From: an uncultured Sphingomonadaceae bacterium
Lineage (GTDB): Bacteria; Pseudomonadota; Alphaproteobacteria; Sphingomonadales; Sphingomonadaceae
Direction: 5' to 3'
DNA: 64,000 nucleotides
Assembly: GCA_947501325.1 (NCBI GenBank)
Contig: CANMVC010000001.1
Location: forward strand, 868,001 to 932,000
Every line of letters starts with the position of its first letter. Within the stretch, counting starts at the first letter, position 1. A program made the position numbers and the translations under genes. The notes under the pieces are model-generated. The model worked only from the letters and a program-made list of their open reading frames with translations, searched no databases and was not told the DNA's origin. This document shows positions 26,142 to 56,974 of the stretch, in pieces.

Positions 26142-26971
26142 GAGTAGATATCTCTCAGGCGCTCACCCTCGATCGTTAGACAAACCAGCAGCAAGACGAG
26201 TAGCCCGCCCGGCAACAAAAGTCCCAGTGGCGTCATGTCCATGTAATCGGCGCCTTCCTTGACCAATATGCCCAGCGATGTCAGCGGTTCCTGAACACCC
26301 AGCCCCAAGAAAGACAAGAAGCTCTCGACCATCACCACCTGCGGCACGGTCAGCATTAAATAAGCCAAGGCAACGCCAGCAATATTGGGCAAGACATGTT
26401 TCAGGATGATTGCAAGCGGCGGTGTCCCAGCCGCTTCGGCCGCCAATATAAAGGGCCGCTGCTTCAGTGCCATGACCTGCCCGCGTACCACGCGCGCCAT
26501 GGTTAGCCATTCGACCAATCCAATGCCCACGAAAACCAGCAATATCGAACGCCCAAAGATCACCATCAGCAGGATGACGATGAACATGAAAGGCAGTGCA
26601 TAAAGCGCATCGACAAAACGCATCATCGCTTCGTCAACCTTGCCGCCGACCCAGCCAGCGGTGGCACCCCAGGCGATGCCGACGACCAGTGAAACCAATG
26701 CGGCAGCTATCGCAACCATCACAGTGACCCGGGTTCCTGCAGCCAGTCGCGCCAGACGATCACGACCAATTTCGTCCGTACCAAGGATATGCGATCCGCT
26801 AAAGGCCGGTGCGCGCACCGCGTCCCAGTCAATCTGGTCATATGTCCATGGCAGGAGGGCCGGCAGTATCAACGCCAAGGCTATCAGGACCAGGACCACC
26901 CAAAGCGGCCAATGCTTGCGATAGCCCCGCCCCGCCCCGGACAGGGAAGGGTGATGTTTCTGCCCGCTCAC
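26138..26971 (-). CDS. OppC/DppC-type ABC transporter permease
   Basis: The 277-residue inner-membrane protein has about six helices (first at about 17-36), a periplasmic loop with AFSGSHILGTDEIGRDRLARL typical of the DppC/OppC N-terminal region, and the coupling EAA loop (AAEAAGTPPLAIILKHVLPN, about 180). It pairs with the OppB-like permease that it overlaps by 4 bases, and with the downstream fused ATPase. Together they form the core of a peptide-type importer. Confidence 0.92.
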   Translation of the reverse strand: MSGQKHHPSLSGAGRGYRKHWPLWVVLVLIALALILPALLPWTYDQIDWDAVRAPAFSGSHILGTDEIGRDRLARLAAGTRVTVMVAIAAALVSLVVGIAWGATAGWVGGKVDEAMMRFVDALYALPFMFIVILLMVIFGRSILLVFVGIGLVEWLTMARVVRGQVMALKQRPFILAAEAAGTPPLAIILKHVLPNIAGVALAYLMLTVPQVVMVESFLSFLGLGVQEPLTSLGILVKEGADYMDMTPLGLLLPGGLLVLLLVCLTIEGERLRDIYS

Positions 26972-35250: not shown

Positions 35251-35347
35251 TGGACAGATAATGTTGTTTGCATGTCAGTTGTAATGATCATGTCATGTTC
35301 TTGCGGATAAAGGACCGGCAGTCAAAGACTAAGGGAGTAGTTAGACT

Positions 35348-45972: not shown

Positions 45973-47187
45973 TCACAGCCCGGCAAGATTTTGAAGCTGC
46001 AATATAGGTAGCAATATAGCTAAAATTACCACCGCGACAACACCGCCCAAGAGCACGATAATCAGCGGTTCGAGCAGGGATAACGCGGTGGAGGTAAAGT
46101 TATCAAATTCGCGCTCCAAATAATCGGCAGCACGCGCCAGCATGTCGTCCAGCTGCCCGGACGCCTCTCCGCTTGCGGTCAGATAGACCAGCATCGGCGG
46201 AAAAACGCCGGTATTCTTGAGCGCTTTGGACAGGCTTCCCCCGCCTCTAATCGCTTCCACCATATCTTCGGCCGCTTTACGCAAGACAGCATTGCCGATG
46301 GTATTGGTCGTCAACCGCAGTCCTTCGAGTATTGGCAGGCGGCTTGCCACCATCGTCGATAAGGTCCGCGCCAGCCGCGCGGCGTTTAAATCGCGCAGCA
46401 ACCGGCCCAGAAAAGGGAGACGCAGCAGAAAATCGTCAAAGCGATATCGCACCTTCCGCTCCTTCAAGGCTCGCCAGCCGGCGACAGCAAAGATGAATAA
46501 CAGGCCCAAAATGGCGCCCCACCAGTTTGCGAGAAAATCGGAAATCCCGATCACCAGTCGCGTCACAAAGGGAAGCTGTTGATTCACATCATCAAATTGC
46601 TCGACCACCTTGGGCACCACGGCAATCATCAACAAGGCCACCACCAGCATCGCAACCAGAGCCAAAACGATGGGATAAGCGAGCGCGCTGATCAGCTTGC
46701 CGCGCATTTCTGCCTGCCGTTCCAGCAGGTTGGCGAGACGCTCTGTGATATCCGGCAAGGTTCCCGAGCTTTCTCCGGCAGAAATCATCGCGCGATAAAG
46801 CGGCGGAAAACTCGCTGGCTCGCGGCGCATGGCTTCGGCCAGACGCTGCCCCTCAATAACACCGCTATGGACCGAGCCTATGCGATCCCGGACATGGGCT
46901 TTTTCATTCTGGTTACCAATAGTCCGCAACGCCTCTTCCAGCGGGCTCACCTGAACCAGCGAAGATAATTGCCGCGTAAACAGCGTCAGTTCTTTCGAAC
47001 CCAGTTTTTTGGGACCGAATAACGAACGCGCCGCCTTGGCCTCTGCCCCCTGCGCGGCTTCCATTTTCACGACATAGAAATTGCGTTCTTTCAGCTTCGC
47101 CCGCGCTGCATCATTGCTGTCGGCGGCCAGGCGACCGGTTTTTTCCTGACCTTTGGGATCGATCGCCGTGTAGGAATAATCAGGCAT
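45973..47187 (-). CDS. gspF: Type II secretion system inner-membrane protein GspF
   Basis: The 404-residue polytopic protein has two T2SSF domains and three membrane helices (about 167-190, 220-240 and 370-395). The family start PDYSYTAIDPKGQEKTG and the ISAGESSGTLPDITERLA and LTASGEASGQLDDMLARAA repeats are clear. It is the rotor-like platform protein that contacts GspE and GspL. The ATG at 47187 is preferred; one 12 bases upstream is possible. It overlaps the end of gspE by 8 bases. Confidence 0.93.
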   Translation of the reverse strand: MPDYSYTAIDPKGQEKTGRLAADSNDAARAKLKERNFYVVKMEAAQGAEAKAARSLFGPKKLGSKELTLFTRQLSSLVQVSPLEEALRTIGNQNEKAHVRDRIGSVHSGVIEGQRLAEAMRREPASFPPLYRAMISAGESSGTLPDITERLANLLERQAEMRGKLISALAYPIVLALVAMLVVALLMIAVVPKVVEQFDDVNQQLPFVTRLVIGISDFLANWWGAILGLLFIFAVAGWRALKERKVRYRFDDFLLRLPFLGRLLRDLNAARLARTLSTMVASRLPILEGLRLTTNTIGNAVLRKAAEDMVEAIRGGGSLSKALKNTGVFPPMLVYLTASGEASGQLDDMLARAADYLEREFDNFTSTALSLLEPLIIVLLGGVVAVVILAILLPILQLQNLAGL

Positions 47188-48748
47188 CAACCTGCTCATC
47201 CAGTGTTTCGCGGCGCGAGATCCGGATGCCTTCTTCGGCGGTGGTTAGCCCTTCGCGAACCAGCGAACGCGCCGCCGATCCCAGATTAGGCTTCTTGAGA
47301 AAGGCATGCGCGGCAATCCGCGCTTCATCGCCTCCGTCATTGATCAATTTGCGAATGGTTTCATCCACCCGGATCGCTTCGAATACACCAATCCGCCCCT
47401 GAAAACCGGTTTGATTACATTCTTCACACCCGACTTCCCGGTAAACGACCGTGCCATTGTCAAAGCCCAGCAAAGAAGCCAGACTGCCATCGGCCTGTAT
47501 CGGAACGCGGCAATGCGGACACAGCTTGCGCACGAGGCGCTGGGCGACCACGGCCCGCAATGTCGATGCCAGCAGAAAGGGCTCGACCTTCATGTCCCGC
47601 ATGCGGGTAATGGCTCCGACCGCATCATTGGTATGCACGGTCGAAAGCACCAGATGACCCGTCAGCGACGCCTGGACAGCGATCTCTGCTGTTTCCCGGT
47701 CGCGAATTTCACCCACCATCACGACGTCAGGATCTTGCCGCAAAATTGCGCGCAAGCCAGCGGCAAAGGTCAAACCGACCTTGGCATTAACTTGGGTCTG
47801 GCCAATACCGTCAATCGCATATTCCACCGGGTCTTCGACGGTCAGGATATTGCGGCTGCCGTCATTTAACTGTTTCAAACCGGCGTAGAGCGACGTGGTT
47901 TTACCCGATCCCGTCGGCCCGGTGACCAATATGATCCCGTTCGGTTCAGCGAGCGCCTCGGTCAAAATCTGGTGGGTGGTTTCCGACATGCCAAGCAGAT
48001 CCAGCGATATTGCGGCACTTTCCTTGTCGAGTATCCGCATCACCACGCGTTCATTGGCACGGTTGGGCAAGGTGGAAACCCGCACATCCAGAAGCTTTCC
48101 ACCGAGGGTCAGGCTGATCCGGCCATCTTGCGGAATCCGGCGCTCTGCAATATCGAGCCGTGCCATGACCTTGATCCGGTTGACGATGACCGATGCCACA
48201 TGCGGCGGCATGCGCAGTTTTTCCTCAAGTACGCCATCGACCCGCATCCGCACGACCAGACCCGTCTCATAGGGTTCGATGTGAATATCCGAAGCCCCCT
48301 GACGTGCCGCTTCAGCGATGATGCCATTAATCAGTCTTATGGTCGGTGCATCATCCGCACTGTCGAGCAAGTCTTCTGCGCTGGGAATATCGCCGGCAAT
48401 ATCATCAAGGGCATCGTTGCCGAGACTCATATCATCGGCCATCGCGGCTGCGCTGCCATCCATGGCATAATGTTCCGACAGGATTTTTTCAAATGCGTCT
48501 GGTGAAACCAGATCAACGTCAAATGGCATGGCCAGATACCGGCGGAGTTCCAACAACGCTTTCGGGTCCGCACCTTCCCGCATGGCGACGGACAAGCGGT
48601 CGCCATCTGTTCGCATGAGCAAAACGCCATGATCGCGGGCAAACGCATAGGGAATATTCAAAAGGGGACGAGACAGTTGCGGCTCTTCTCCAGCGGACTT
48701 TTTGGTATCGCCGGAACTGTCAGCATCTGTTCCCTTTGCGATTTTCAT
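47180..48748 (-). CDS. gspE: Type II secretion ATPase GspE
   Basis: The 522-residue cytoplasmic ATPase has an N-terminal N1E domain, Walker A GPTGSGKTTS near residue 278, Asp and His boxes (DIHIEP, LSTVHTNDAV), and a C-terminal zinc motif made of CPHC and CEECNQTGFQGR. It powers the pseudopilus. The start forms TGATG with the gspD stop. The N-terminal region has a short acidic insert (MSLGNDALDDIAGDIPSAED) before the catalytic domain. Confidence 0.95.
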   Translation of the reverse strand: MKIAKGTDADSSGDTKKSAGEEPQLSRPLLNIPYAFARDHGVLLMRTDGDRLSVAMREGADPKALLELRRYLAMPFDVDLVSPDAFEKILSEHYAMDGSAAAMADDMSLGNDALDDIAGDIPSAEDLLDSADDAPTIRLINGIIAEAARQGASDIHIEPYETGLVVRMRVDGVLEEKLRMPPHVASVIVNRIKVMARLDIAERRIPQDGRISLTLGGKLLDVRVSTLPNRANERVVMRILDKESAAISLDLLGMSETTHQILTEALAEPNGIILVTGPTGSGKTTSLYAGLKQLNDGSRNILTVEDPVEYAIDGIGQTQVNAKVGLTFAAGLRAILRQDPDVVMVGEIRDRETAEIAVQASLTGHLVLSTVHTNDAVGAITRMRDMKVEPFLLASTLRAVVAQRLVRKLCPHCRVPIQADGSLASLLGFDNGTVVYREVGCEECNQTGFQGRIGVFEAIRVDETIRKLINDGGDEARIAAHAFLKKPNLGSAARSLVREGLTTAEEGIRISRRETLDEQVDA

Positions 48749-50952
48749 CAGTCCTCTCTCTCCGCACCGGGGTTGCTGGGCGTAACCGGGACAGGCTGTA
48801 CCGTTCCGCTATTTTGCGGCGCGCCGACCGCCCCTGGCGCGTATATAATCTGGTCGCCAGGTAGCGTCGCCGTAGCTGGTGGAACGGCACCCATATAGTC
48901 CCGGACCAACACATCGAGAGAAGGCTCCAGCTCGGGGTCCCGGGCCAATTGGCGATTCCGGATATAGCCATAGCGGCGGGCGGAGAATGCCCGGGCATCG
49001 GCGCGATTGCGCAATATTTTGGGGCGGATAAACACCATCAAATTGGTTTTGACCCGCGACTTGCCCCGTGATTTGAACAATTCGCCAAGCAGCGGAATGT
49101 CTCCCAGAAACGGGATTTTCTCAATCGTACGGCGCTCATTGTCGTCAAGCAGCCCGCCGAGCGCGATAATTTCTCCGTCGCCGACGGTGACCGTCGTTTT
49201 GATTTCGCGCTTGTTGATGATCAGTTCATTGAAATCATCAGAAACCGGTCCGGCGATGGAGCTGACTTCCTGACGCAGATCGAGCCGCACTTCATCTCCC
49301 GCATTGATCTGAGGCGTCACTTCCAATTCGATCCCGACATTTTGCCGTTGAATCGTCCGAAATGCGTTGTCGAAATTATTGGACAAAGCCTCACCGGTTG
49401 ATACCGGGATTTCCTGACCAAAGAGGATGCTGCCTTTGAGATTATTATTCACGGTCAAAGACGGTGTGGACAGCAGGTTGGAATCGGAATCACGCTGCAC
49501 GGCGTTGATAATCGCGCCCAATATCGTGTCACCGCCCAGCGTCGTTGCAAAGCCGGTAAACGCGCCTCTGGCTCCCAGGATCGCATCGGCGGCATTTTCA
49601 AGCAGCTGATCACCCACCGCGCTATTTGTCGTTGTGGTCGTCGCTGTATCGGTTGTCGTTGTCGTCGTGGTATCAAACTGATCGGCCAGCAGACCACCCG
49701 CAAGATCGACAATATTTGGCGAAGCGTTCGAGAAATTCGTTACTGCAAAAGGCGTATCTTTGCCGCCGATCAGGAATTGCACACCCAATTCACGCGCCAG
49801 CGAATCCGAGATTTCAACGATAATCGCCTCAACCGAGACCTGCTCCTGGCGCGTATCAAGCTGCCGGATCAGTTCACCCACCATTCTTTGCACGTCCGGA
49901 TTGGCAGCGACAATAATCGCATTGGTGCCTTCGTAACGGGTGACCACTGCCGGGCCATGACGCGCGATACCGGTTCCGTTACCGGAACTGGAACTGCTCG
50001 ATATGGCCGCTGGCGTTGGCGCGCTACCATTGCTGCCGCTCGCAGATACGGGCGCTACGGATGTGGGAGTTGTACCACTGGAACCGGCGCTACCCTGTCC
50101 CATCAGCTGTTCAATCACGGGCAGTAATTGTTCGGCATTGGCGTAATCGAGCTGATGCACGCGAATTTCTGTGCCGGATTCCGCGCGTTGGTCGAGCTCG
50201 CGCGCCATTTGCACGAACTTGGCAACGGCGCCAGGATCCCCGCGCAAGGCGATGCTGTTGCTGCTATCAATTGCCACAACCGTCACCGGCGTGACATTGC
50301 CCTCTCCGCCCTGCTGCGCAAGGGTTTGCAAGGAGGTCGCAATTTCCCGAGCGCCAGCATTTTTGAGATTCACGATGGTCGATGCGGCGCTGTCTTTGTC
50401 AATCTGTTGAATCAATTGGCGAACCCGGCGAATATTGTCGGCATAGTCGACAATCACGAGGCTATTCGCGTTGCGGTTGGCCGTAATCGCCCCTTGTTTG
50501 CTGATCAGCGGACGCAATGTCTCCAGAGCAGCGGTCGCCTCGATCGACTTAAGCCGAACGACTTCGGTTACAAACTGGTTTGCCGGCGATTGGCGCGTAC
50601 CAATCCGGGTGGGCTGGGTCGCCGCACCGTCAGCGGGTTGAATCCGATATGCGCCGCCCGTTGTGGGAATGGCGACAAGATTATTGGCACGCAATGTCGA
50701 GAGGAAAATCTCGAAATATTCCGAACGGGACAGCGGTCGATCCGTCACGACAGAGACTTTGCCCTGCACCCGGCTATCGACCACGAAGGTTCGTCCGGTC
50801 ACGCGAGCCGCATCCTGAACAAAGGCTCGAATGTCGGCATCACGCACGTTCAGGCTATGCTGCGCGAACACCGGAACCGTCATGACCGGCCCTAATATGG
50901 CCATGGATAGTGTCAGTTTCAGCGCGATTTTCGGGAAAATACTCTTCATCAT
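48748..50952 (-). CDS. gspD: Type II secretion outer-membrane secretin GspD
   Basis: The 734-residue secretin has a signal peptide (about 1-30, ending VFAQ), N0 domain (LNVRDADIRAFVQDAARVTG), three N1-N3 domains, and the C-terminal secretin domain (PSLTVNNNLKGSILFGQEIPV, KREIKTTVTVGDGEIIALGG). Two low-complexity inserts are present: a Ser/Gly-rich linker near residues 300-330 and a Thr-rich run near residues 430-447 just before the secretin core. It forms the outer-membrane gate. It overlaps gspC by 4 bases and gspE by 1 base. Confidence 0.94.
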   Translation of the reverse strand: MMKSIFPKIALKLTLSMAILGPVMTVPVFAQHSLNVRDADIRAFVQDAARVTGRTFVVDSRVQGKVSVVTDRPLSRSEYFEIFLSTLRANNLVAIPTTGGAYRIQPADGAATQPTRIGTRQSPANQFVTEVVRLKSIEATAALETLRPLISKQGAITANRNANSLVIVDYADNIRRVRQLIQQIDKDSAASTIVNLKNAGAREIATSLQTLAQQGGEGNVTPVTVVAIDSSNSIALRGDPGAVAKFVQMARELDQRAESGTEIRVHQLDYANAEQLLPVIEQLMGQGSAGSSGTTPTSVAPVSASGSNGSAPTPAAISSSSSSGNGTGIARHGPAVVTRYEGTNAIIVAANPDVQRMVGELIRQLDTRQEQVSVEAIIVEISDSLARELGVQFLIGGKDTPFAVTNFSNASPNIVDLAGGLLADQFDTTTTTTTDTATTTTTNSAVGDQLLENAADAILGARGAFTGFATTLGGDTILGAIINAVQRDSDSNLLSTPSLTVNNNLKGSILFGQEIPVSTGEALSNNFDNAFRTIQRQNVGIELEVTPQINAGDEVRLDLRQEVSSIAGPVSDDFNELIINKREIKTTVTVGDGEIIALGGLLDDNERRTIEKIPFLGDIPLLGELFKSRGKSRVKTNLMVFIRPKILRNRADARAFSARRYGYIRNRQLARDPELEPSLDVLVRDYMGAVPPATATLPGDQIIYAPGAVGAPQNSGTVQPVPVTPSNPGAERED

Positions 50953-51785
50953 GGCGCTCCCATGTTCATTGCTATGGGAACCGTATCTGCTCCACGTTCA
51001 ACTTCGAGGGAGAGCCGCGCGCCGGGGATAATTTGCCTTTTGAGCGTTGCGATATCGCTGGTTGAGGAAACCGGCTGACCGTTTACCGAGACAATAATGT
51101 CACCGTCCTGAAAACCGGCAGCACGAAACAGGGCGCTTTCGCCGCGCGGACTGACGACAATTCCGGTTACCTTGCCATCCGCGTTGCGGGGCGAAAGGTC
51201 AAAGGCATTGGCGATCATCTCGGCTGTCGGCATATTGCCGGTCGAAGCAACCGCCGGGCCGTCGAATTGCCCGCTGCTGTCGCCTTCCGCGCCAACAGTT
51301 TTAGCGGGAATCGATTGGTCGAGATACAGGCTTTCCATGACGCCGCCGCGATCAATGATGACATGGTCAAAGAGCACCGTGTTCAATTTCACGCCGGACA
51401 TGATTTCATCCCCGACAGCATAGCTTTCCTGCACGCCATCTGGTCCTGCCAATATGGCGGAGCCCAGGCCGGACCCTTCGTTCATGCGAACGCCAAACAA
51501 GGTAAGCTGAAGCGATGTAACAACATTGGCGCTAGCGGCAGGGCCGGAGCGAAAAAAAGGATCAAAATTGCTGAACAAGGACAGTCGCGATTGCGGCGGC
51601 AAAATTTGGACGTCTCTGGTCTGCCATTCGCCCATCGGTCCCAGCGGTGTCACAACCAACCAGACCAGTCTAATCGCCTGAATCGCCAGCAATAGGACCA
51701 ATATGGCCAGCATAACCGGATAAAGTCCCCGAGAGCCCGACAAACGGCCCCCCATAAACATTGGCTTTGAAGATAGAATATTCAC
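50949..51785 (-). CDS. gspC: Type II secretion system protein GspC with PDZ domain
   Basis: The 278-residue protein has one N-terminal membrane helix (about 22-43), an HR domain (VTSLQLTLFGVRMNEGSGLGSAIL) that contacts the secretin N0 domain, and a C-terminal PDZ domain (about 195-275, with GFQDGDIIVSVNGQPVSS). It links platform and secretin and may select substrates. It is the first gene of the gspC-D-E-F-G run. An array of PhoB-like units lies 43-82 bases upstream of its start, with a TATAGC -10-like sequence between. Confidence 0.92.
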   Translation of the reverse strand: MNILSSKPMFMGGRLSGSRGLYPVMLAILVLLLAIQAIRLVWLVVTPLGPMGEWQTRDVQILPPQSRLSLFSNFDPFFRSGPAASANVVTSLQLTLFGVRMNEGSGLGSAILAGPDGVQESYAVGDEIMSGVKLNTVLFDHVIIDRGGVMESLYLDQSIPAKTVGAEGDSSGQFDGPAVASTGNMPTAEMIANAFDLSPRNADGKVTGIVVSPRGESALFRAAGFQDGDIIVSVNGQPVSSTSDIATLKRQIIPGARLSLEVERGADTVPIAMNMGAP

Positions 51786-51827
51786 GAATCCCCGATCCTG
51801 CTTCCCTGAAATCGCTATAACGGTTTG

Positions 51828-51867
51828 GTGACCAACCCGCGACTCATTGATGACAGAAAAATTACAG
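51828..51867 (-). promoter_or_regulatory. Four-unit PhoB-like array upstream of gspC
   Basis: Reading on the minus strand: CTGTAAT (51861-51867), CTGTCAT (51850-51856), GAGTCGC (51839-51845) and TGGTCAC (51828-51834), each 11 bases apart. The 7-bp unit with 4-bp spacer is the Pho box layout and one unit is an exact CTGTCAT. A TTATAG-type -10 follows about 10 bases later, facing gspC. The neighbouring hairpin at 51867-51883 touches it. Confidence 0.6.
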
Positions 51868-51883
51868 GGCGTGTGTCACACCC
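51867..51883 (-). terminator. Possible terminator after the TonB-dependent receptor gene
   Basis: On the minus strand GGGTGTG and CACGCCC pair (7 bp, one G-T) around ACA, 20 bases past the receptor stop. TGTAATTTTTC follows, so a T-run starts 5 bases after the stem. It abuts the PhoB-like array and would separate the receptor from gspC. Confidence 0.5.
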
Positions 51884-51903
51884 GATAGGACAGCATCGGT
51901 GCG

Positions 51904-54609
51904 TTAGAAATTGATACCGATGCTCATCGACAGGCGTGTGCCAATATCATAGCCATTGTTGATAATCTGTGTGTCGTTCAGGGTCTGTGATTCCCGGTAG
52001 TCGGTGCCCAGAAGATTGCGCGCTTCAAACTTCAGCTGAAATTCCTGACCGGCAATTTCCAGCGCTTCGCGCATGACGAAATCCAACTGCCAGCCGGTAC
52101 GTTCAATCAAATCCGGTTGATCCTGTGGCCCGCGCGCGGTGACCCGGGGGCTGTTATAGCTGACCAACAAAGTCTGCTGCGACAAGCCTTCTTCGGCTTC
52201 CATCCCGAATTGCAGGTTGGCAACATGGGTGGACTGACCGGTTAGACGATCGCCGTCATCGAACAAATTCAAGGCGCTGGTCGGCTGCAGGGTAACCGGG
52301 TTAATGGCCGTGTCGCCATCCGCCACATTTATCTCCGACTTTGTATATGTATAGTTAGCCGCAAGCATCAGGCGGCGGCTTTCGAAAAATTCGCCACCAA
52401 ATACATTATTGAGTGGGAAATATTTCACCAGCTCGACTTCCGCGCCGTAGAGCTTGGCACTCGGGGCATTGGCAAAACCGGTGAACAGGGTTCCGCCGCC
52501 CTGAACAAAGGCAACATTCTCAATTGGATTGTCGATATCTTTGTAAAAACCGGCCAGCGTAATCCGCTCGCCGCGACCGATATAATATTCGAACCGGCCT
52601 TCCAGATTGACCAACTCGCTATCTTGCAACAGCGGGTTACCGATAAAGGTACGATCCGTATCAAGATCGAGAAACTGCTGTGGAGCCAATTCACGAAACT
52701 GCGGCCGGGCTATGGTTTTGGACGCTGCCAGACGAAATTGCATATCATCGGCAAAATTCCAGGTCAGCGTGCCGGCGGGCAACCAGTAATCGTTATTCAG
52801 ACCTGTCGCCACCGAGGCCTGGCCGCCGGTTAACGCGATCGGCAGGACTTCCTGCTGCGCATCTTCATAACGGACACCGACATTGAGGCGCAGACCATCG
52901 GTCAGTTCCGCATCAATCTGGCCATAGCCGCCATGTATTTCCAGCTCCGCGGTATAGGCCGGCACAGATGTCTGGGCTGCGACTTCGCGCAGTTCGATTT
53001 CCTGGGTGAATATGTTGAAGTCCGACAGAAGGAAGTCGATCCGCTGCTGGTCAAACGGGCTCGCCAATCCGTTGACAGGCACGAAGCGGAAATCGCGGCG
53101 CTGCGCATCACGGTCATTCAGATAGTAGCTGTAACCGGCGGTCAGATTAATCGGTATACCGATATCGGTTTCATAGCCGAGATCAATTCCCGCGCCATAA
53201 ACATCATCGTTCAAATCGCTGAAACGGATACGCGCGGACTCGCCAGGCGAGGTCAGGTCGTTGACAAAATCATTCGCAAACTGGTCATCAAAGGCATAGC
53301 TATATGTCCGCTGATAGGGCGCATCGCGTTTGGAGTTGGCGTAGCTGCCCCGCAAATCGACCGAAATGGCGTCAAATTTCAACTCACCGACAAACTGGGT
53401 CGTGAATAGCTGGCGTTCGAACCAGCTCGTGCGACTTTGATTCAGCAGGGTTTCTTCATCAACATTAATCGCATCAATGCCCTGTTTGATCGAAGCATCT
53501 TTGACTGTGTCGTGAATATAGAGGTTCGTGAACCGGAATTTATGCTCCCCGATTTCCGCCGACAAAGCCAGCAGGCCATTCACAATGATGCGGTTTTCAG
53601 TCGTCAGAAAGTTGAAATTCTGATCGGGACGCAAGCCTTCTGTACCGTCAATATTGACAATGCCCTGCGATGTCTGTTGCAAACCGCCGCGCGTCCTCCA
53701 GCTATTCTCAAAGCCTGCTGTGGCGATGATCCCGACAAAGGCGTCACCCACATCGACCGTTGTACCGCCGGTTACTTCTGCAGAGAAATTCGCCGGAATA
53801 TCATTATTCCGCTGAATCAGCGCTGTTTCCGCATTGCTCAGGCTGGCCGCGAAATTTTGCAGATCAATACTGCTGAAATTGGTGCCCGCCGATATCGGGA
53901 CATTTTGTGCTATTGCCTGGCGCAAACCGCTTGGGATATTGCGCAAGCCACTGTCATAGCCGATGATATCGGTGCCAGACCCGTCATAGGTATAGCCCAG
54001 TTTTCCTGTCGTCTCGCTGTCACCACTGAGTCCGAAATTAAATTTTAGAAACGGCTCATCCGGGGTCGATTTGGTCGTCAGATTGATCACGCCGCCGCCA
54101 AATTCGCCAGGATAATTTACCGAATAGCTTTTCTGAACCACCGTCGAGGCAATTACGCTGGTGGGAAAAAGATCCAGCGGTACCACCCGGCGCAGCGGCT
54201 CGGGCGATGGCAATGGCAGGCCGTTGAGGAGAGCCAGCGAATATCGCTCACCCAAACCGCGCACAAATACGAAGCGACCACCGACAACGCTGAGACCGGT
54301 TACCCGTTGCAGCGATCCGGCAATATCTCCGTCGGCCGCACGCGCAATTTCTTCCTCTCCCAGAACGGAGACGACTTCTGATGTGGCCCGGATGGGGTTG
54401 GGGATAAATTTGCCGCGGACAATGATATCACCGCTAAAATCGCCGCCGGGGGCCGAGATATCGACATCTTCGTCAGGCGAGTCCTCGGTTGGCACTTCAT
54501 CGGTTTGGTCGGGTTGGGCCGCCGGATCGTTAGCTTGGGCCAAGGCAGCCGGAGAAAACAGCGCCGTACTCAAAAATAGGCTGGTGACCAAAGATGCCCG
54601 CTTCGTCAT
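51904..54609 (-). CDS. Large TonB-dependent outer-membrane receptor
   Basis: The 901-residue protein has a signal peptide (cleavage after ALA, residue 24), an acidic linker, a plug domain (about 65-190, with GLSVVGGRFVFVRGLGERYS, NGLPLPSPEP and YPGEFGGGVINLTTKS) and a beta-barrel ending in the C-terminal Phe of SMSIGINF. No separate TonB box could be picked out. The ligand is unknown. It follows the PT-linker lipoprotein after a hairpin terminator. AAGGAAA precedes the ATG. In Caulobacter crescentus a phosphate-starvation lipoprotein (ElpS) lies next to a type II secretion set, so the context suggests joint function. Confidence 0.9.
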   Translation of the reverse strand: MTKRASLVTSLFLSTALFSPAALAQANDPAAQPDQTDEVPTEDSPDEDVDISAPGGDFSGDIIVRGKFIPNPIRATSEVVSVLGEEEIARAADGDIAGSLQRVTGLSVVGGRFVFVRGLGERYSLALLNGLPLPSPEPLRRVVPLDLFPTSVIASTVVQKSYSVNYPGEFGGGVINLTTKSTPDEPFLKFNFGLSGDSETTGKLGYTYDGSGTDIIGYDSGLRNIPSGLRQAIAQNVPISAGTNFSSIDLQNFAASLSNAETALIQRNNDIPANFSAEVTGGTTVDVGDAFVGIIATAGFENSWRTRGGLQQTSQGIVNIDGTEGLRPDQNFNFLTTENRIIVNGLLALSAEIGEHKFRFTNLYIHDTVKDASIKQGIDAINVDEETLLNQSRTSWFERQLFTTQFVGELKFDAISVDLRGSYANSKRDAPYQRTYSYAFDDQFANDFVNDLTSPGESARIRFSDLNDDVYGAGIDLGYETDIGIPINLTAGYSYYLNDRDAQRRDFRFVPVNGLASPFDQQRIDFLLSDFNIFTQEIELREVAAQTSVPAYTAELEIHGGYGQIDAELTDGLRLNVGVRYEDAQQEVLPIALTGGQASVATGLNNDYWLPAGTLTWNFADDMQFRLAASKTIARPQFRELAPQQFLDLDTDRTFIGNPLLQDSELVNLEGRFEYYIGRGERITLAGFYKDIDNPIENVAFVQGGGTLFTGFANAPSAKLYGAEVELVKYFPLNNVFGGEFFESRRLMLAANYTYTKSEINVADGDTAINPVTLQPTSALNLFDDGDRLTGQSTHVANLQFGMEAEEGLSQQTLLVSYNSPRVTARGPQDQPDLIERTGWQLDFVMREALEIAGQEFQLKFEARNLLGTDYRESQTLNDTQIINNGYDIGTRLSMSIGINF

Positions 54610-54633
54610 CGGAAATTTCCTTTTTCATAACTC

Positions 54634-54669
54634 AAAAAAGGGGATGGCGACTGCGCGAGCCACCATCCC
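54634..54669 (-). terminator. Terminator or attenuator between lipoprotein and receptor genes
   Basis: On the minus strand GGGATGG...CCATCCC (54641-54669) forms a stem of about 12 bp with two G-T pairs, followed by C and TTTTTT. It lies 16 bases after the lipoprotein stop and 25 bases before the receptor ATG, leaving no room for a full receptor promoter. Partial read-through would give more lipoprotein than receptor. Confidence 0.75.
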
Positions 54670-54685
54670 ACCAAATTATTTTCGA

Positions 54686-56209
54686 TCAACCAATTGTTGG
54701 AGCCGTCGCACAATCATCGGCGTACAGACCACATGTCCAACCCTGGAACCGGGTGTCATTCGCGTCCTGAACGGCGCCAATATAAGTGACGTCTTCGAAG
54801 AAGGCGTCCACACCGCTCACCGCAAATGGCACCACCGCATTTTCATTGGCACCGTTGATGAACGGGAATGCTGCCGAGCCAGCGGCCAGCGTTGACGTGC
54901 CGGATGCCGTGTTGTTGCTGCCCGCGTTGAACAGCGTTTCGATCTGCGCCGCAGTGATATTGCCATCGTCGACAAATGGCGTTGCGCAGCTCATGAACGT
55001 CGATTCAAACACGGGTGGACCATTTTCATCCGCTGCTGCGCCTGCCGCCTGGATTGTGGTCGCACTGTCGATATCGATACAGGCGGCTGCACTGTTAAAT
55101 ACGCTGTTGTAGAAAGCGAAATCGCCACCGCCACGCAACAGGATGACGTGGTCCTCAGCGCTCGAGACGAACGTCACGTTGGCCAGCTTGTGATCTTGCC
55201 GTGGCTCAGCATCTTCGTCGCCATTCGAATCCGCTTCCATGACATGGTCACCGCCACCGGCGCGTTGCACGACCAGAACAAACTGGTTGTTGCCTTTATA
55301 GCCGGAGTCCGAGTCCACCGAGTCATCGTCAATGCCGGTCATCACCAGGTTTTTTCCGTTTACCCGGCCGCCAAACCATTCGACACCATCATCCGAGCTG
55401 TTGTGGACCTGAATATTCTGGAAGAATGTTCCGCTGCCGACGCCCGCCAGGGTGATGCCGTTAAGCTCGTTGCCCGGAGACACTTCGAAACCGGGATAGC
55501 GGACCTGTACATAGGACATGCGGCCGCTGGAATCGGCCGGCAAGGTGCCGCCGTAAACCGCGTTGGTCGGGCCTTCGACAATCGCTTCGCAATCGGTCCG
55601 CGTGCCACCCGGATTGGATGCACCGCCGGTTGCACAATCGGAAATGGGCGCACGGCCCAAAATCACCACACCGCCCCACTGGCCGATGCTGTTCACATTG
55701 GTCGAGCCTTCAATATTCTGGCGCGAAGTCATGATGATCGGTTCAGACGCCGTCCCTTCCGCGAAAATCTGGGAACCGCGATTGACCAGCAGGAAATCGC
55801 CGCCAGAAGAACCGAACATCACAACGCCGGATTCGATGGTAATGATCCCGGTTGCGCCGCCATCAACACCAATTTCAACCGCACCGTTAAGCGAATAGAT
55901 CGTACCGGCATTGTCCGGAACAACGAGATTTCCGGTAACAACGCCCGAAATCTGGCAGTTGCGCACTTCTTCGCCATTGCCGGTCGTGATCGTTCCGACA
56001 TTGGCTGTACCAGTGGGGCAGTCTGCCGCAGGGCCGGTTGGCGTCGGGGTCGGGGTCGGCGTTGGAGTTGGCGTTGGCGTAGGTGTGGGGGTTGGTGGAA
56101 TAATCACTACACCTTCACCCGGTGATGCCACATCATCAGCGCCACAGGCGGTTACCGCAATTGCTGCTACACCAGCAAAAAGGACAGAACGAATTTGCTT
56201 ATTCAACAT
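54686..56209 (-). CDS. Surface-type lipoprotein with Pro-Thr repeat linker, ElpS-like by context
   Basis: The 507-residue product has a lipoprotein signal (lipobox VTAC, Cys22; +2 Gly then Ala-Asp-Asp), a linker of ten Pro-Thr dipeptides (residues 39-58), and a long beta-rich domain with a repeating NG/GG pattern typical of a right-handed beta-helix. That domain includes GIITIESGVVMFGSSGGDFL, GQWGGVVILGRAPI, HNSSDDGVEWFGGRV and several Cys pairs. It would be held on the outer membrane by lipid with the domain projecting on the linker. It heads a pair with the receptor. A PhoB-like array is 110-171 bases upstream. The function is inferred only from context. Confidence 0.8.
   Translation of the reverse strand: MLNKQIRSVLFAGVAAIAVTACGADDVASPGEGVVIIPPTPTPTPTPTPTPTPTPTPTGPAADCPTGTANVGTITTGNGEEVRNCQISGVVTGNLVVPDNAGTIYSLNGAVEIGVDGGATGIITIESGVVMFGSSGGDFLLVNRGSQIFAEGTASEPIIMTSRQNIEGSTNVNSIGQWGGVVILGRAPISDCATGGASNPGGTRTDCEAIVEGPTNAVYGGTLPADSSGRMSYVQVRYPGFEVSPGNELNGITLAGVGSGTFFQNIQVHNSSDDGVEWFGGRVNGKNLVMTGIDDDSVDSDSGYKGNNQFVLVVQRAGGGDHVMEADSNGDEDAEPRQDHKLANVTFVSSAEDHVILLRGGGDFAFYNSVFNSAAACIDIDSATTIQAAGAAADENGPPVFESTFMSCATPFVDDGNITAAQIETLFNAGSNNTASGTSTLAAGSAAFPFINGANENAVVPFAVSGVDAFFEDVTYIGAVQDANDTRFQGWTCGLYADDCATAPTIG
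56036..56095 (-). repeat. Ten-unit degenerate hexamer encoding (Pro-Thr)10
   Basis: Ten successive 6-base units (CCN ACN) encode Pro-Thr ten times in the lipoprotein linker. Third positions vary, so this is not a pure slipping tract, but length change by whole units is plausible and would keep frame. Confidence 0.85.
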
Positions 56210-56318
56210 GGATCAAGTCTCCGCAGATTACTGATTTCAAAAATTTTCAGATCAGATGATGTGGAAACGAATCAAAAATGCCCCCATCGCCTTCGGACTT
56301 GGGCACTAGGCGCGGCAA

Positions 56319-56380
56319 ATGACCTGCCGATGCTGTTTGCATGACTCTTTGGAGACATAAATATTTCAGGATTGTTGCAG
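56319..56380 (-). promoter_or_regulatory. PhoB-like array upstream of the lipoprotein gene
   Basis: Units on the minus strand at 11-base spacing: CTGCAAC (56374-56380), CTGAAAT (56363-56369), ATGTCTC (56352-56358), GAGTCAT (56341-56347), ACAGCAT (56330-56336) and AGGTCAT (56319-56325). The first four follow the same order and are similar to those of the array at 56935-56974. Individual units are imperfect matches to CTGTCAT; the strict register is the main support. Confidence 0.55.
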
Positions 56381-56459
56381 CCCGTTCGGGAGTGGCTGAA
56401 GCACTTGGTTTTTGATGCTGCGGTGCAAAAAAGCATCAGTATAAATATTGTTGAAACAA

Positions 56460-56487
56460 AAAAGGCGGCCGCGTGAACGACCGCCTG
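56460..56487 (-). terminator. Intrinsic terminator after the TPR-like gene
   Basis: On the minus strand AGGCGG and CCGCCT pair, with an inner extension of about 4 bp including G-T pairs, and a run of six T follows. It lies 23 bases past the stop of the TPR-like gene. Confidence 0.8.
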
Positions 56488-56510
56488 ATCCTGTGGACGG
56501 GATTACCGGC

Positions 56511-56885
56511 TTAGCGTGAAGCCAGCCGTCCGTTGAGATCGTCGAGAGCGATTGCAGCCGCCTTGCGAGAATTGATCACCTGACCATCAGCCAGCACGAG
56601 ATCAAAGCTGCGGTTGCTGTTCATCGCCGCCGTGAACATTTTCGCTGCATCGCCCGTTCGTCCGGTGCGGGCATAAGCCTGACCCAGATTGATCATGACA
56701 GCAGGATCTTTCAGCTTGCTGCTTTCCAGCCTTGCAACGGCGGCCTGATTGTCGCCAGCCATCAAAGCATCATACGCCAAGGCACCCTTGGCATAGCCAA
56801 TTTCGCCTTCTTGCGCCTGCGCCAGTGCTGGCGAAGCGGCCATGGTCAGGCCCATAGCGAACGCAATTTTCTTTGCGTTTTTCAT
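56511..56885 (-). CDS. Small secreted TPR-like protein
   Basis: The 124-residue product has a signal peptide (about 1-23, ending PALAQ) and a tetratricopeptide-like pair of helices (YAKGALAYDALMAGDNQAAVARLE and PAVMINLGQAYARTGRTGDAAKMF). It ends with a short helical tail (RKAAAIALDDLNGRLASR). It should act in the periplasm as a small binding protein. The ATG at 56885 is chosen because AGGAG lies 7 bases upstream; a GTG 6 bases earlier is less likely. PhoB-like units lie in both orientations upstream, and a terminator follows, so it is probably a single-gene unit. Confidence 0.78.
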   Translation of the reverse strand: MKNAKKIAFAMGLTMAASPALAQAQEGEIGYAKGALAYDALMAGDNQAAVARLESSKLKDPAVMINLGQAYARTGRTGDAAKMFTAAMNSNRSFDLVLADGQVINSRKAAAIALDDLNGRLASR

Positions 56886-56913
56886 AGTCACTCTCCTGTT
56901 TCTTTAGTCCTTT

Positions 56914-56931
56914 GTTACACTTTTATGACCA
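56914..56931 (-). promoter_or_regulatory. PhoB-like pair facing the TPR-like gene
   Basis: On the minus strand TGGTCAT (56925-56931), AAAA and GTGTAAC (56914-56920) make a 7-4-7 pair, each matching the Pho box consensus at 5 of 7 positions. It lies 29 bases upstream of the ATG, between the start and the opposite-strand array. Confidence 0.35.
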
Positions 56932-56934
56932 TAG

Positions 56935-56974
56935 CTGCAACATAACTGTAATATTTTTGTCATGGAAGAGTCAT
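56935..56974 (+). promoter_or_regulatory. Four-unit PhoB-like array upstream of the TPR-like gene, opposite orientation
   Basis: CTGCAAC (56935-56941), CTGTAAT (56946-56952), TTGTCAT (56957-56963) and GAGTCAT (56968-56974) are spaced exactly 11 bases apart on the plus strand. Similarity to the array at 56319-56380 extends over about 40 bases, including the order of variant units. It points away from the TPR-like gene and no plus-strand gene follows, so the orientation is unexplained. Confidence 0.55.

What the first reader, a model, noticed from the sequence alone, without database searches (positions are those of the whole stretch)
51828..56974. Three in-register PhoB-like arrays across a type II secretion / receptor / lipoprotein locus
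Three arrays of 7-bp units at exact 11-bp spacing lie upstream of gspC (51828-51867), upstream of the PT-linker lipoprotein gene (56319-56380) and upstream of the TPR-like gene (56935-56974). Units such as CTGTCAT, TTGTCAT, CTGTAAT and GAGTCAT match the CTGTCAT-N4-CTGTCAT layout of Pho boxes. Two arrays share unit order over about 40 bases. This suggests one phosphate-starvation regulon covering secretion and surface genes. In Caulobacter crescentus, ElpS, a phosphate-starvation lipoprotein, lies beside a type II secretion set.
Basis: partly seen in the sequence, partly recalled or inferred. Interest (0 to 1): 0.82.

Follow-up and report, generated by a model that had tools for sequence, protein, structure and literature searches.

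The report
Phosphate-starvation switch on secretion genes
A relative of the bacterium Sphingorhabdus carries three conserved clusters of a DNA site that matches the phosphate-hunger control site, in front of its protein-secretion genes, a surface lipoprotein gene and a small helper gene; this fits what is known in Caulobacter, with one cluster oddly facing backwards.

Summary
In detail: all three arrays are at the stated places with exact 11-bp spacing. A matrix trained on pstS promoters of 27 other genomes ranks these three first among 4-unit arrays in the 64-kb window (29.3, 24.1, 17.3; next separate site 10.0). With 2 or 3 units the lipoprotein array does not stand out. In the genus, arrays score 12 or more before gspC in 26 of 30 loci, before the lipoprotein gene in 23 of 30, reversed before the TPR gene in 20 of 30, forward there in 1, and nowhere else in 243 kb. 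pstS, gspC and lipoprotein promoters share one geometry: last unit, 7 bp, -10-like hexamer. In named relatives 0 of 79 receptor genes have an array. The lipoprotein-receptor-T2SS order is that of the Caulobacter elpS locus, whose T2SS is in the PhoB regulon (papers, passages): a new member of a known kind. Correction: the TPR array faces away from its gene, its first unit overlaps the putative -35, and a forward pair overlaps the putative -10, so activation cannot be assumed; a dual switch is possible. No binding or expression was tested.

The parts
51828..51867 (-). gspC Pho-type array, 4 units at 11-bp spacing
   Evidence: 4-unit score 24.1; 26 of 30 genus loci
51815..51820 (-). putative -10 (TTATAG) of the gspC promoter, 7 bp after the last unit
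   Evidence: same distance as in pstS and lipoprotein promoters; function inferred
50949..51785 (-). gspC, first of the T2SS genes here
   Evidence: Pfam T2SSC E 3.7e-21 plus PDZ
45973..50952 (-). gspD (48748-50952), gspE (47180-48748), gspF (45973-47199) downstream of gspC
   Evidence: ORFs; Pfam Secretin and T2SSE, T2SSF
51904..54609 (-). TonB-dependent receptor, in the place of CC0171; no Pho array of its own found
   Evidence: Pfam Plug and barrel; 0 of 79 receptor genes in named relatives have an upstream array
54686..56209 (-). ElpS-like lipoprotein gene with a PT linker; model mostly beta strands
   Evidence: no Pfam match; 30 of 32 genus genomes
56319..56380 (-). lipoprotein Pho-type array, 6 units at 11-bp spacing
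   Evidence: 17.3 for the first four units; 23 of 30; 29 of 30 by anchor
56306..56311 (-). putative -10 (GCCTAG) of the lipoprotein promoter, 7 bp after the last unit
   Evidence: function inferred
56511..56885 (-). small TPR-like protein with a signal-peptide-like start
   Evidence: TPR matches below Pfam's curated cut-offs; conserved protein, found in 27 of 30 genus loci
56935..56974 (+). TPR-gene Pho-type array, 4 units, facing away from the gene; first unit overlaps the putative -35 TTGCAG
   Evidence: score 29.3; reversed in 20 of 30 genus loci, forward in 1
56914..56931 (-). second, forward unit pair TGGTCAT-AAAA-GTGTAAC, overlapping the putative -10 of the TPR gene
   Evidence: majority consensus of 27 genus loci

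Best explanation
The arrays are binding sites for the response regulator PhoB. When phosphate is scarce, PhoR phosphorylates PhoB, which lines up head-to-tail on 4 to 6 half-sites. At gspC and the lipoprotein gene the last half-site sits 7 bp from the -10, as at pstS, so PhoB stands in for the -35 contact and recruits RNA polymerase; the cell then makes more T2SS and more ElpS-like lipoprotein. The receptor gene has no site of its own and is either read through from the lipoprotein gene or constitutive. The TPR gene is also a PhoB target, through a reversed array over its -35 and a forward pair over its -10, so PhoB may activate it, repress it or do both in turn. Shown here: the arrays, their conservation, the common geometry, the match to pstS promoters, and the presence of PhoR-, Pst- and PhoB-type genes. 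Inferred: binding, response to phosphate, direction of regulation, the -10 and -35 assignments, and the work of the proteins.
For: pstS-trained matrix ranks exactly these three arrays first in the window with 4 units. Conserved in place in the genus with no other site of 12 or more in 243 kb of these loci. The gspC array stays where gsp lies far from the lipoprotein gene, about 188 kb in G006 and 87 kb in G011. In 80 named relatives forward arrays at p<=0.01 lie before 22 of 76 lipoprotein genes and 14 of 38 gspC hits, but 0 of 79 receptor and 0 of 37 gspD genes. Gene cluster of histidine kinase, phosphate-binding protein, two permeases, ATPase and OmpR/PhoB-type regulator. In C. crescentus elpS is induced by phosphate starvation (PMC2996285, passages) and T2SS is in the PhoB regulon found by transcriptomes (PMC11208175, passages).
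Against: No binding or expression data. In C. crescentus gspE/gspL rose only 1.7-fold in poor medium, GspL protein was alike in rich and poor media, and the receptor gene was constitutive (PMC2996285, passages); the passages read of PMC11208175 do not say whether T2SS is a direct PhoB target. 4 of 30 genus gspC loci lack the distal units. 54 of 76 lipoprotein genes and 24 of 38 gspC hits in named relatives have no forward array at p<=0.01, though the matrix is genus-trained and starts are estimated. The lipoprotein array is weak with 2 or 3 units. The TPR array faces the wrong way for standard activation.
Confidence: 0.85

Rival explanations
1. The arrays bind another OmpR/PhoB-family regulator with a taste for similar 11-bp direct repeats, and respond to a signal other than phosphate.
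For: Other OmpR-family regulators use direct repeats of about this spacing (recalled). The units GAGTCGC, CTGCAAC and ATGTCTC depart from CTGTCAT.
Against: The matrix that finds them was trained on pstS promoters only; the distance from last unit to -10 equals that of pstS; the same gene set is PhoB-dependent in C. crescentus (PMC11208175, passages).
Confidence: 0.1
2. The TPR-gene array is a PhoB repression or dual-control site: PhoB on the reversed array and on the -10 pair blocks or pulses transcription, so this gene falls or peaks early while gspC and the lipoprotein gene rise. This can be true together with the best explanation.
For: Reversed array scoring in 20 of 30 genus loci and a forward pair over the -10 in the consensus of 27 loci. 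In E. coli a weak PhoB site on the antisense strand at the -10 of phoB represses it (PMC6194859, passages).
Against: The reversed array also covers the usual activation position over the -35. In G005 the forward units score instead (18.4). The forward pair is absent from the consensus of 13 divergent loci, so it is not general. No expression data.
Confidence: 0.35
3. The similarity is chance, or a local duplication of A+T-rich promoter DNA without function.
For: Two arrays share 31 of 40 bases; the lipoprotein array alone reaches its score in about 1% of simulated windows.
Against: 0 of 300 simulated windows had two arrays of 17.2 or more; unit cores are conserved column by column while the 5' flank is not; no arrays before receptor or gspD genes.
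Confidence: 0.02

Closest known systems
C. crescentus elpS (CC0170) - TonB receptor (CC0171) - gspC-N locus
   Same: Same gene order: lipoprotein, TonB receptor, gspC onward. The paper names Sphingomonas alaskensis, Hyphomonas neptunium and Xanthomonas campestris as having a similar order (PMC2996285, passages). T2SS in the PhoB regulon (PMC11208175, passages).
   Different: Here Pho arrays are located and compared across genomes, and a TPR gene with a reversed array sits upstream. CC0170 itself was not fetched and aligned.
Pho box promoters (pstS type)
   Same: 7-bp units every 11 bp, TGTCA-like core, fixed distance from the last unit to a -10-like hexamer.
   Different: 4 to 6 units rather than the 2 of the textbook box (recalled); divergent units such as GAGTCGC and CTGCAAC; the TPR array is reversed.
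E. coli phoB promoter with activation site plus antisense repression site at the -10
   Same: PhoB sites in two orientations, one over the -10 (PMC6194859, passages).
   Different: There the -10 site is antisense and its two tracts are 5 bp apart; at the TPR gene the -10 pair is sense, the upstream array antisense, and spacing is the normal 11 bp.
Pseudomonas aeruginosa Hxc T2SS
   Same: A T2SS tied to phosphate limitation (recalled; only search listings were seen).
   Different: Different lineage; a second, dedicated T2SS (recalled).
Flavobacterium johnsoniae low-Pi lipoproteins FI/FII/FIII
   Same: Low-Pi-induced lipoproteins, FI and FII beside TonB-dependent transporters, 31-36% identical over 50-54% to the C. 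crescentus lipoprotein (PMC8115612, passages).
   Different: Bacteroidetes; no T2SS link in the passages read.

Membership tests
PhoB binding array (Pho box) | 7-bp units with TGTCA-like core repeated every 11 bp | tested here: met
PhoB binding array (Pho box) | Match to sites of an established PhoB target (pstS) in the same lineage | tested here: met
   pstS-trained matrix from 27 other genomes, 4-unit scan; weaker for the lipoprotein array with 2 or 3 units
PhoB binding array (Pho box), gspC and lipoprotein gene | Placed upstream of and facing the -10, in place of the -35 | tested here: met
   Last unit + 7 bp + -10-like hexamer, as at pstS; -10 is a prediction
PhoB binding array (Pho box), TPR gene | Array faces the gene | tested here: not met
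   Opposite strand in the window and in 20 of 30 genus loci; forward in 1 of 30
PhoB binding array (Pho box) | Binds phosphorylated PhoB; transcription responds to phosphate and phoB | not testable with these tools
   Needs bench work
PhoB/PhoR/Pst system in this genome | Sensor kinase, Pst transporter and OmpR/PhoB-type regulator in one cluster | tested here: met
   Pfam HisKA/HATPase, PBP_like_2, two BPD_transp_1, ABC_tran, Response_reg + Trans_reg_C; the names PhoR, Pst, PhoB follow from order and sequence reading
ElpS-type lipoprotein locus | Lipoprotein gene followed by TonB receptor gene and gspC | tested here: met
ElpS-type lipoprotein | Direct sequence relationship to CC0170 | tested here: inconclusive
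   CC0170 not fetched; relatives in Brevundimonas, Phenylobacterium and Asticcacaulis at 38-54% with a receptor neighbour
ElpS-type lipoprotein | Released to the medium in a T2SS-dependent way | not testable with these tools
   Needs bench work
T2SS | GspC, GspD, GspE and GspF families encoded in order | tested here: met

The most novel reading that the evidence does not exclude
The TPR gene is controlled by a two-way PhoB switch for which I found no match in print: a reversed Pho array over its -35 and a forward pair over its -10, giving a pulse or inverse response while T2SS and lipoprotein rise, so that a small exported TPR protein acts as a timed helper or brake of phosphate-driven secretion in sphingomonads.
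Probability: 0.25. Interest if true: 0.5.

Novelty: new member of a known kind. Interest (0 to 1): 0.38.

Why it matters
It gives site-level evidence that the T2SS and the ElpS-like lipoprotein of many sphingomonads are under phosphate control, and shows that the site stays with gspC in genomes where the secretion genes lie far from the lipoprotein gene. It also adds a small TPR protein with an unusual backward Pho array as a candidate new part of the phosphate response.

Tried and rejected
Chance: rejected by simulations and conservation. A receptor-gene array: looked for, 0 of 79. A promoter driven by the TPR array in its own direction: by eye no -10 at the distance seen in the other promoters. 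A solved-structure relative of the lipoprotein by sequence: one hit, E 0.024, taken as chance. Fold: AlphaFold2 model pLDDT 86.6, pTM 0.85; Foldseek gave one match at E<=0.001 (a phage tailspike) and 285 weaker ones; in the 50 listed, TM-scores are below 0.4 and many are tailspikes, pectate lyases and alginate epimerases, which are beta-helix folds (recalled), so only the fold class is suggested. Class-wide search: 4 of 142 genomes matched, the own one, G043 and G094 over nearly the whole protein, G140 over residues 12-90 only. Family search: 114 of 149 matched at E<=0.001, but some matches cover only the N-terminal linker. PMC9123166 was read in passages; its phoB work is on a Rhizobium partner., listing 15 of 78 and 12 of 27 papers, showed none on T2SS Pho boxes in sphingomonads; only open-licence PubMed Central papers are held.

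Weak points: genomes of one genus are not independent (effective number of training sites 7.9). The pstS register was set by a hand-written consensus, and 2 of 30 pstS loci without upstream DNA were dropped. The choice of 4 units followed the finding. The 29-of-30 count for the lipoprotein promoter comes from a pattern that demands GTCA, the spacing and CTA. In one search the -35 was picked by pattern, in the named loci so as to favour a CATAAT-like -10. In one search the null windows come from the same loci, starts are estimated, four lipoprotein genes lacked upstream DNA, and several Sphingomonas loci have an array further upstream that one search lists as 'other' (19 such sites in 1.0 Mb). 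One of the 38 gspC hits (L171, 26% identity) is probably not gspC. Three of 30 genus loci had no TPR gene.
Full report
What was checked. The three arrays are in the sequence as described, with exact 11-bp steps. gspC: minus strand, 51867 down to 51828, four units. Lipoprotein gene: minus strand, 56380 down to 56319, six units. TPR gene: plus strand, 56935 to 56974, four units. The genes concerned lie on the minus strand, so the first two arrays face their genes and the third faces away from its gene.

Independent test. The genome is 3.58 Mb in 18 contigs. It holds, in one cluster, a histidine kinase, a phosphate-binding protein, two permeases, an ATPase, an OmpR/PhoB-type regulator and a phosphate-selective porin. 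Of 30 pstS loci from the genus, 28 had upstream DNA, and each of the 28 can be fitted with three TGTMA-like units at 11-bp steps and an AGGACA-like fourth. A unit matrix was built from 27 of them, the own genome left out, effective number 7.9. Scanned over the window on both strands for four units in a row, its three best separate sites are the three arrays: 29.3, 24.1 and 17.3; the next separate site scores 10.0. Of 300 simulated windows of like dinucleotide make-up, none had a site of 24.0 or more, 4 had a top site of 17.2 or more, and none had a second; in an earlier 30 the largest was 19.65. Against this: with three units the lipoprotein array scores 12.7, behind unrelated sites at 26219 (14.8) and 35268 (12.8), and with two units it is not in the best 14. 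In the whole genome TGTMAYN5TGTMAY occurs 10 times (backwards control 4); two are in this locus, at gspC and the TPR gene, and two overlap at pstS.

Conservation in the genus. The lipoprotein is found in 30 of 32 genomes; the two without it are 82% and 73% complete. gspC is found in 31 of 32. With a four-unit threshold of 12, 26 of 30 gspC loci, 23 of 30 lipoprotein loci and, reversed, 20 of 30 TPR places carry an array; one TPR place (G005) has it forward; no other place in the 242,632 bases of these loci reaches 12. Anchored on GTCA, the 7-bp gap and CTA, 29 of 30 lipoprotein loci share the layout. In several genomes gsp is not next to the lipoprotein gene, for instance about 188 kb away in G006 and 87 kb in G011; the gspC array is kept there. 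The four gspC loci below the threshold are G003, G007, G022 and G027; by eye they keep the two promoter-near units.

Common geometry. In pstS, gspC and the lipoprotein gene of this genome the last unit is followed by 7 bp and a -10-like hexamer: AGTACAC + 7 + TTTTAA, TGGTCAC + 7 + TTATAG, AGGTCAT + 7 + GCCTAG. Unit cores and the -10 region are the most conserved columns, and the 5' flank is not conserved (28 pstS, 24 gspC and 29 lipoprotein loci). This is the layout expected when PhoB takes the place of a -35.

The TPR gene. It is found in 27 of 30 lipoprotein loci. Its promoter reads, in gene direction, a row of reversed units, the last holding a putative -35 TTGCAR, then 17 bp, then a putative -10. 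The consensus of 27 loci shows the reversed pair (TTACAG in 20 of 27, related units in the others) and a forward pair GTCA-like/GTGTAA that runs into the -10. In 13 named loci with the gene divergent from the lipoprotein gene, mainly erythrobacter-type, the consensus keeps the reversed units and TTGCA but not the forward pair. In E. coli a weak PhoB site on the antisense strand over the -10 of phoB represses that promoter (PMC6194859, passages). So activation, repression or a pulse are all possible for this gene.

Wider relatives. A scan of named genomes gave 80 loci, the best of more. The genus is Sphingorhabdus as the records name it: L163 (Sphingorhabdus sp. EL138) has the contig length and place of G019. 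A receptor gene is in 79 of 80 loci, GspD in 37, TPR in 21. Against random windows of the same loci, a forward three-unit array at p<=0.01 lies before 22 of 76 lipoprotein genes, 14 of 38 gspC hits, 0 of 79 receptor genes and 0 of 37 gspD genes; before the TPR gene it is 0 of 21 forward and 4 of 21 reversed; before the lipoprotein gene 1 of 76 is reversed. With a fixed threshold of 16 the counts in either orientation were 12 of 76, 13 of 38, 0 of 79 and, for TPR, 3 of 21, with 19 sites elsewhere in 1.0 Mb. Those with arrays are mostly sphingomonads in the wide sense; Phenylobacterium, one Brevundimonas and Euryhalocaulis have sites at or near p 0.01. Xanthomonas, Luteimonas and Kordiimonas show no forward array at this level. 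The matrix is genus-trained, so a miss far away says little.

The proteins. GspC, D, E and F match their Pfam families, the receptor matches Plug and barrel, the lipoprotein matches nothing in Pfam or NCBIfam at E<=0.001, and the TPR matches stay below the curated cut-offs. The lipoprotein model (pLDDT 86.6, pTM 0.85) is mostly beta; its structural matches are weak.

What is known. In C. crescentus the lipoprotein ElpS (CC0170), the receptor CC0171 and gspC-N lie in the same order; ElpS is made under phosphate starvation and released in a T2SS-dependent way; the receptor gene was constitutive, gspE/gspL rose 1.7-fold in poor medium and GspL protein was alike in both media (PMC2996285, passages). 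The T2SS is in the 47-gene PhoB regulon found by transcriptomes there (PMC11208175, passages); the passages do not say whether directly. Related low-phosphate lipoproteins exist in Flavobacterium (PMC8115612, passages). The finding is thus a well-supported new member of a known kind, with one odd feature, the TPR promoter.

What remains inferred. PhoB binding, phosphate response, direction of control at the TPR gene, the -10 and -35 assignments and the work of the lipoprotein and the TPR protein are inferences. The calls show sequence, conservation and gene order only.

Noticed in passing
L241 (G000:C1:746566-746583): The only other exact CTGTNATN5TGTCAT site of the genome, CTGTCAT-GAAA-CTGTCAT, lies at the start of an ORF that by eye looks like a membrane protein; 3-unit score 23.6.
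   Followed up: partly
window 35279-35296: Two-unit site TTGTAAT-GATC-ATGTCAT between an ORF that by eye looks like a tRNA-synthetase relative and one like an HNH endonuclease.
   Followed up: partly
L130 9654-9693: A weak array (4-unit score 10.8) upstream of the phosphate-selective porin gene (Pfam Porin_O_P) that follows the PhoB-type gene.
   Followed up: partly
L174, L186, L191, L203 and similar loci; L179, L183, L185: The TPR gene lies divergently beside the lipoprotein gene in erythrobacter-type genomes, in the same direction in Sphingorhabdus, and downstream of the receptor gene in some Sphingobium: it moves but stays close.
   Followed up: partly
G003:C1:965077-966605: In one genus member the lipoprotein matches in two separate pieces.
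   Followed up: no
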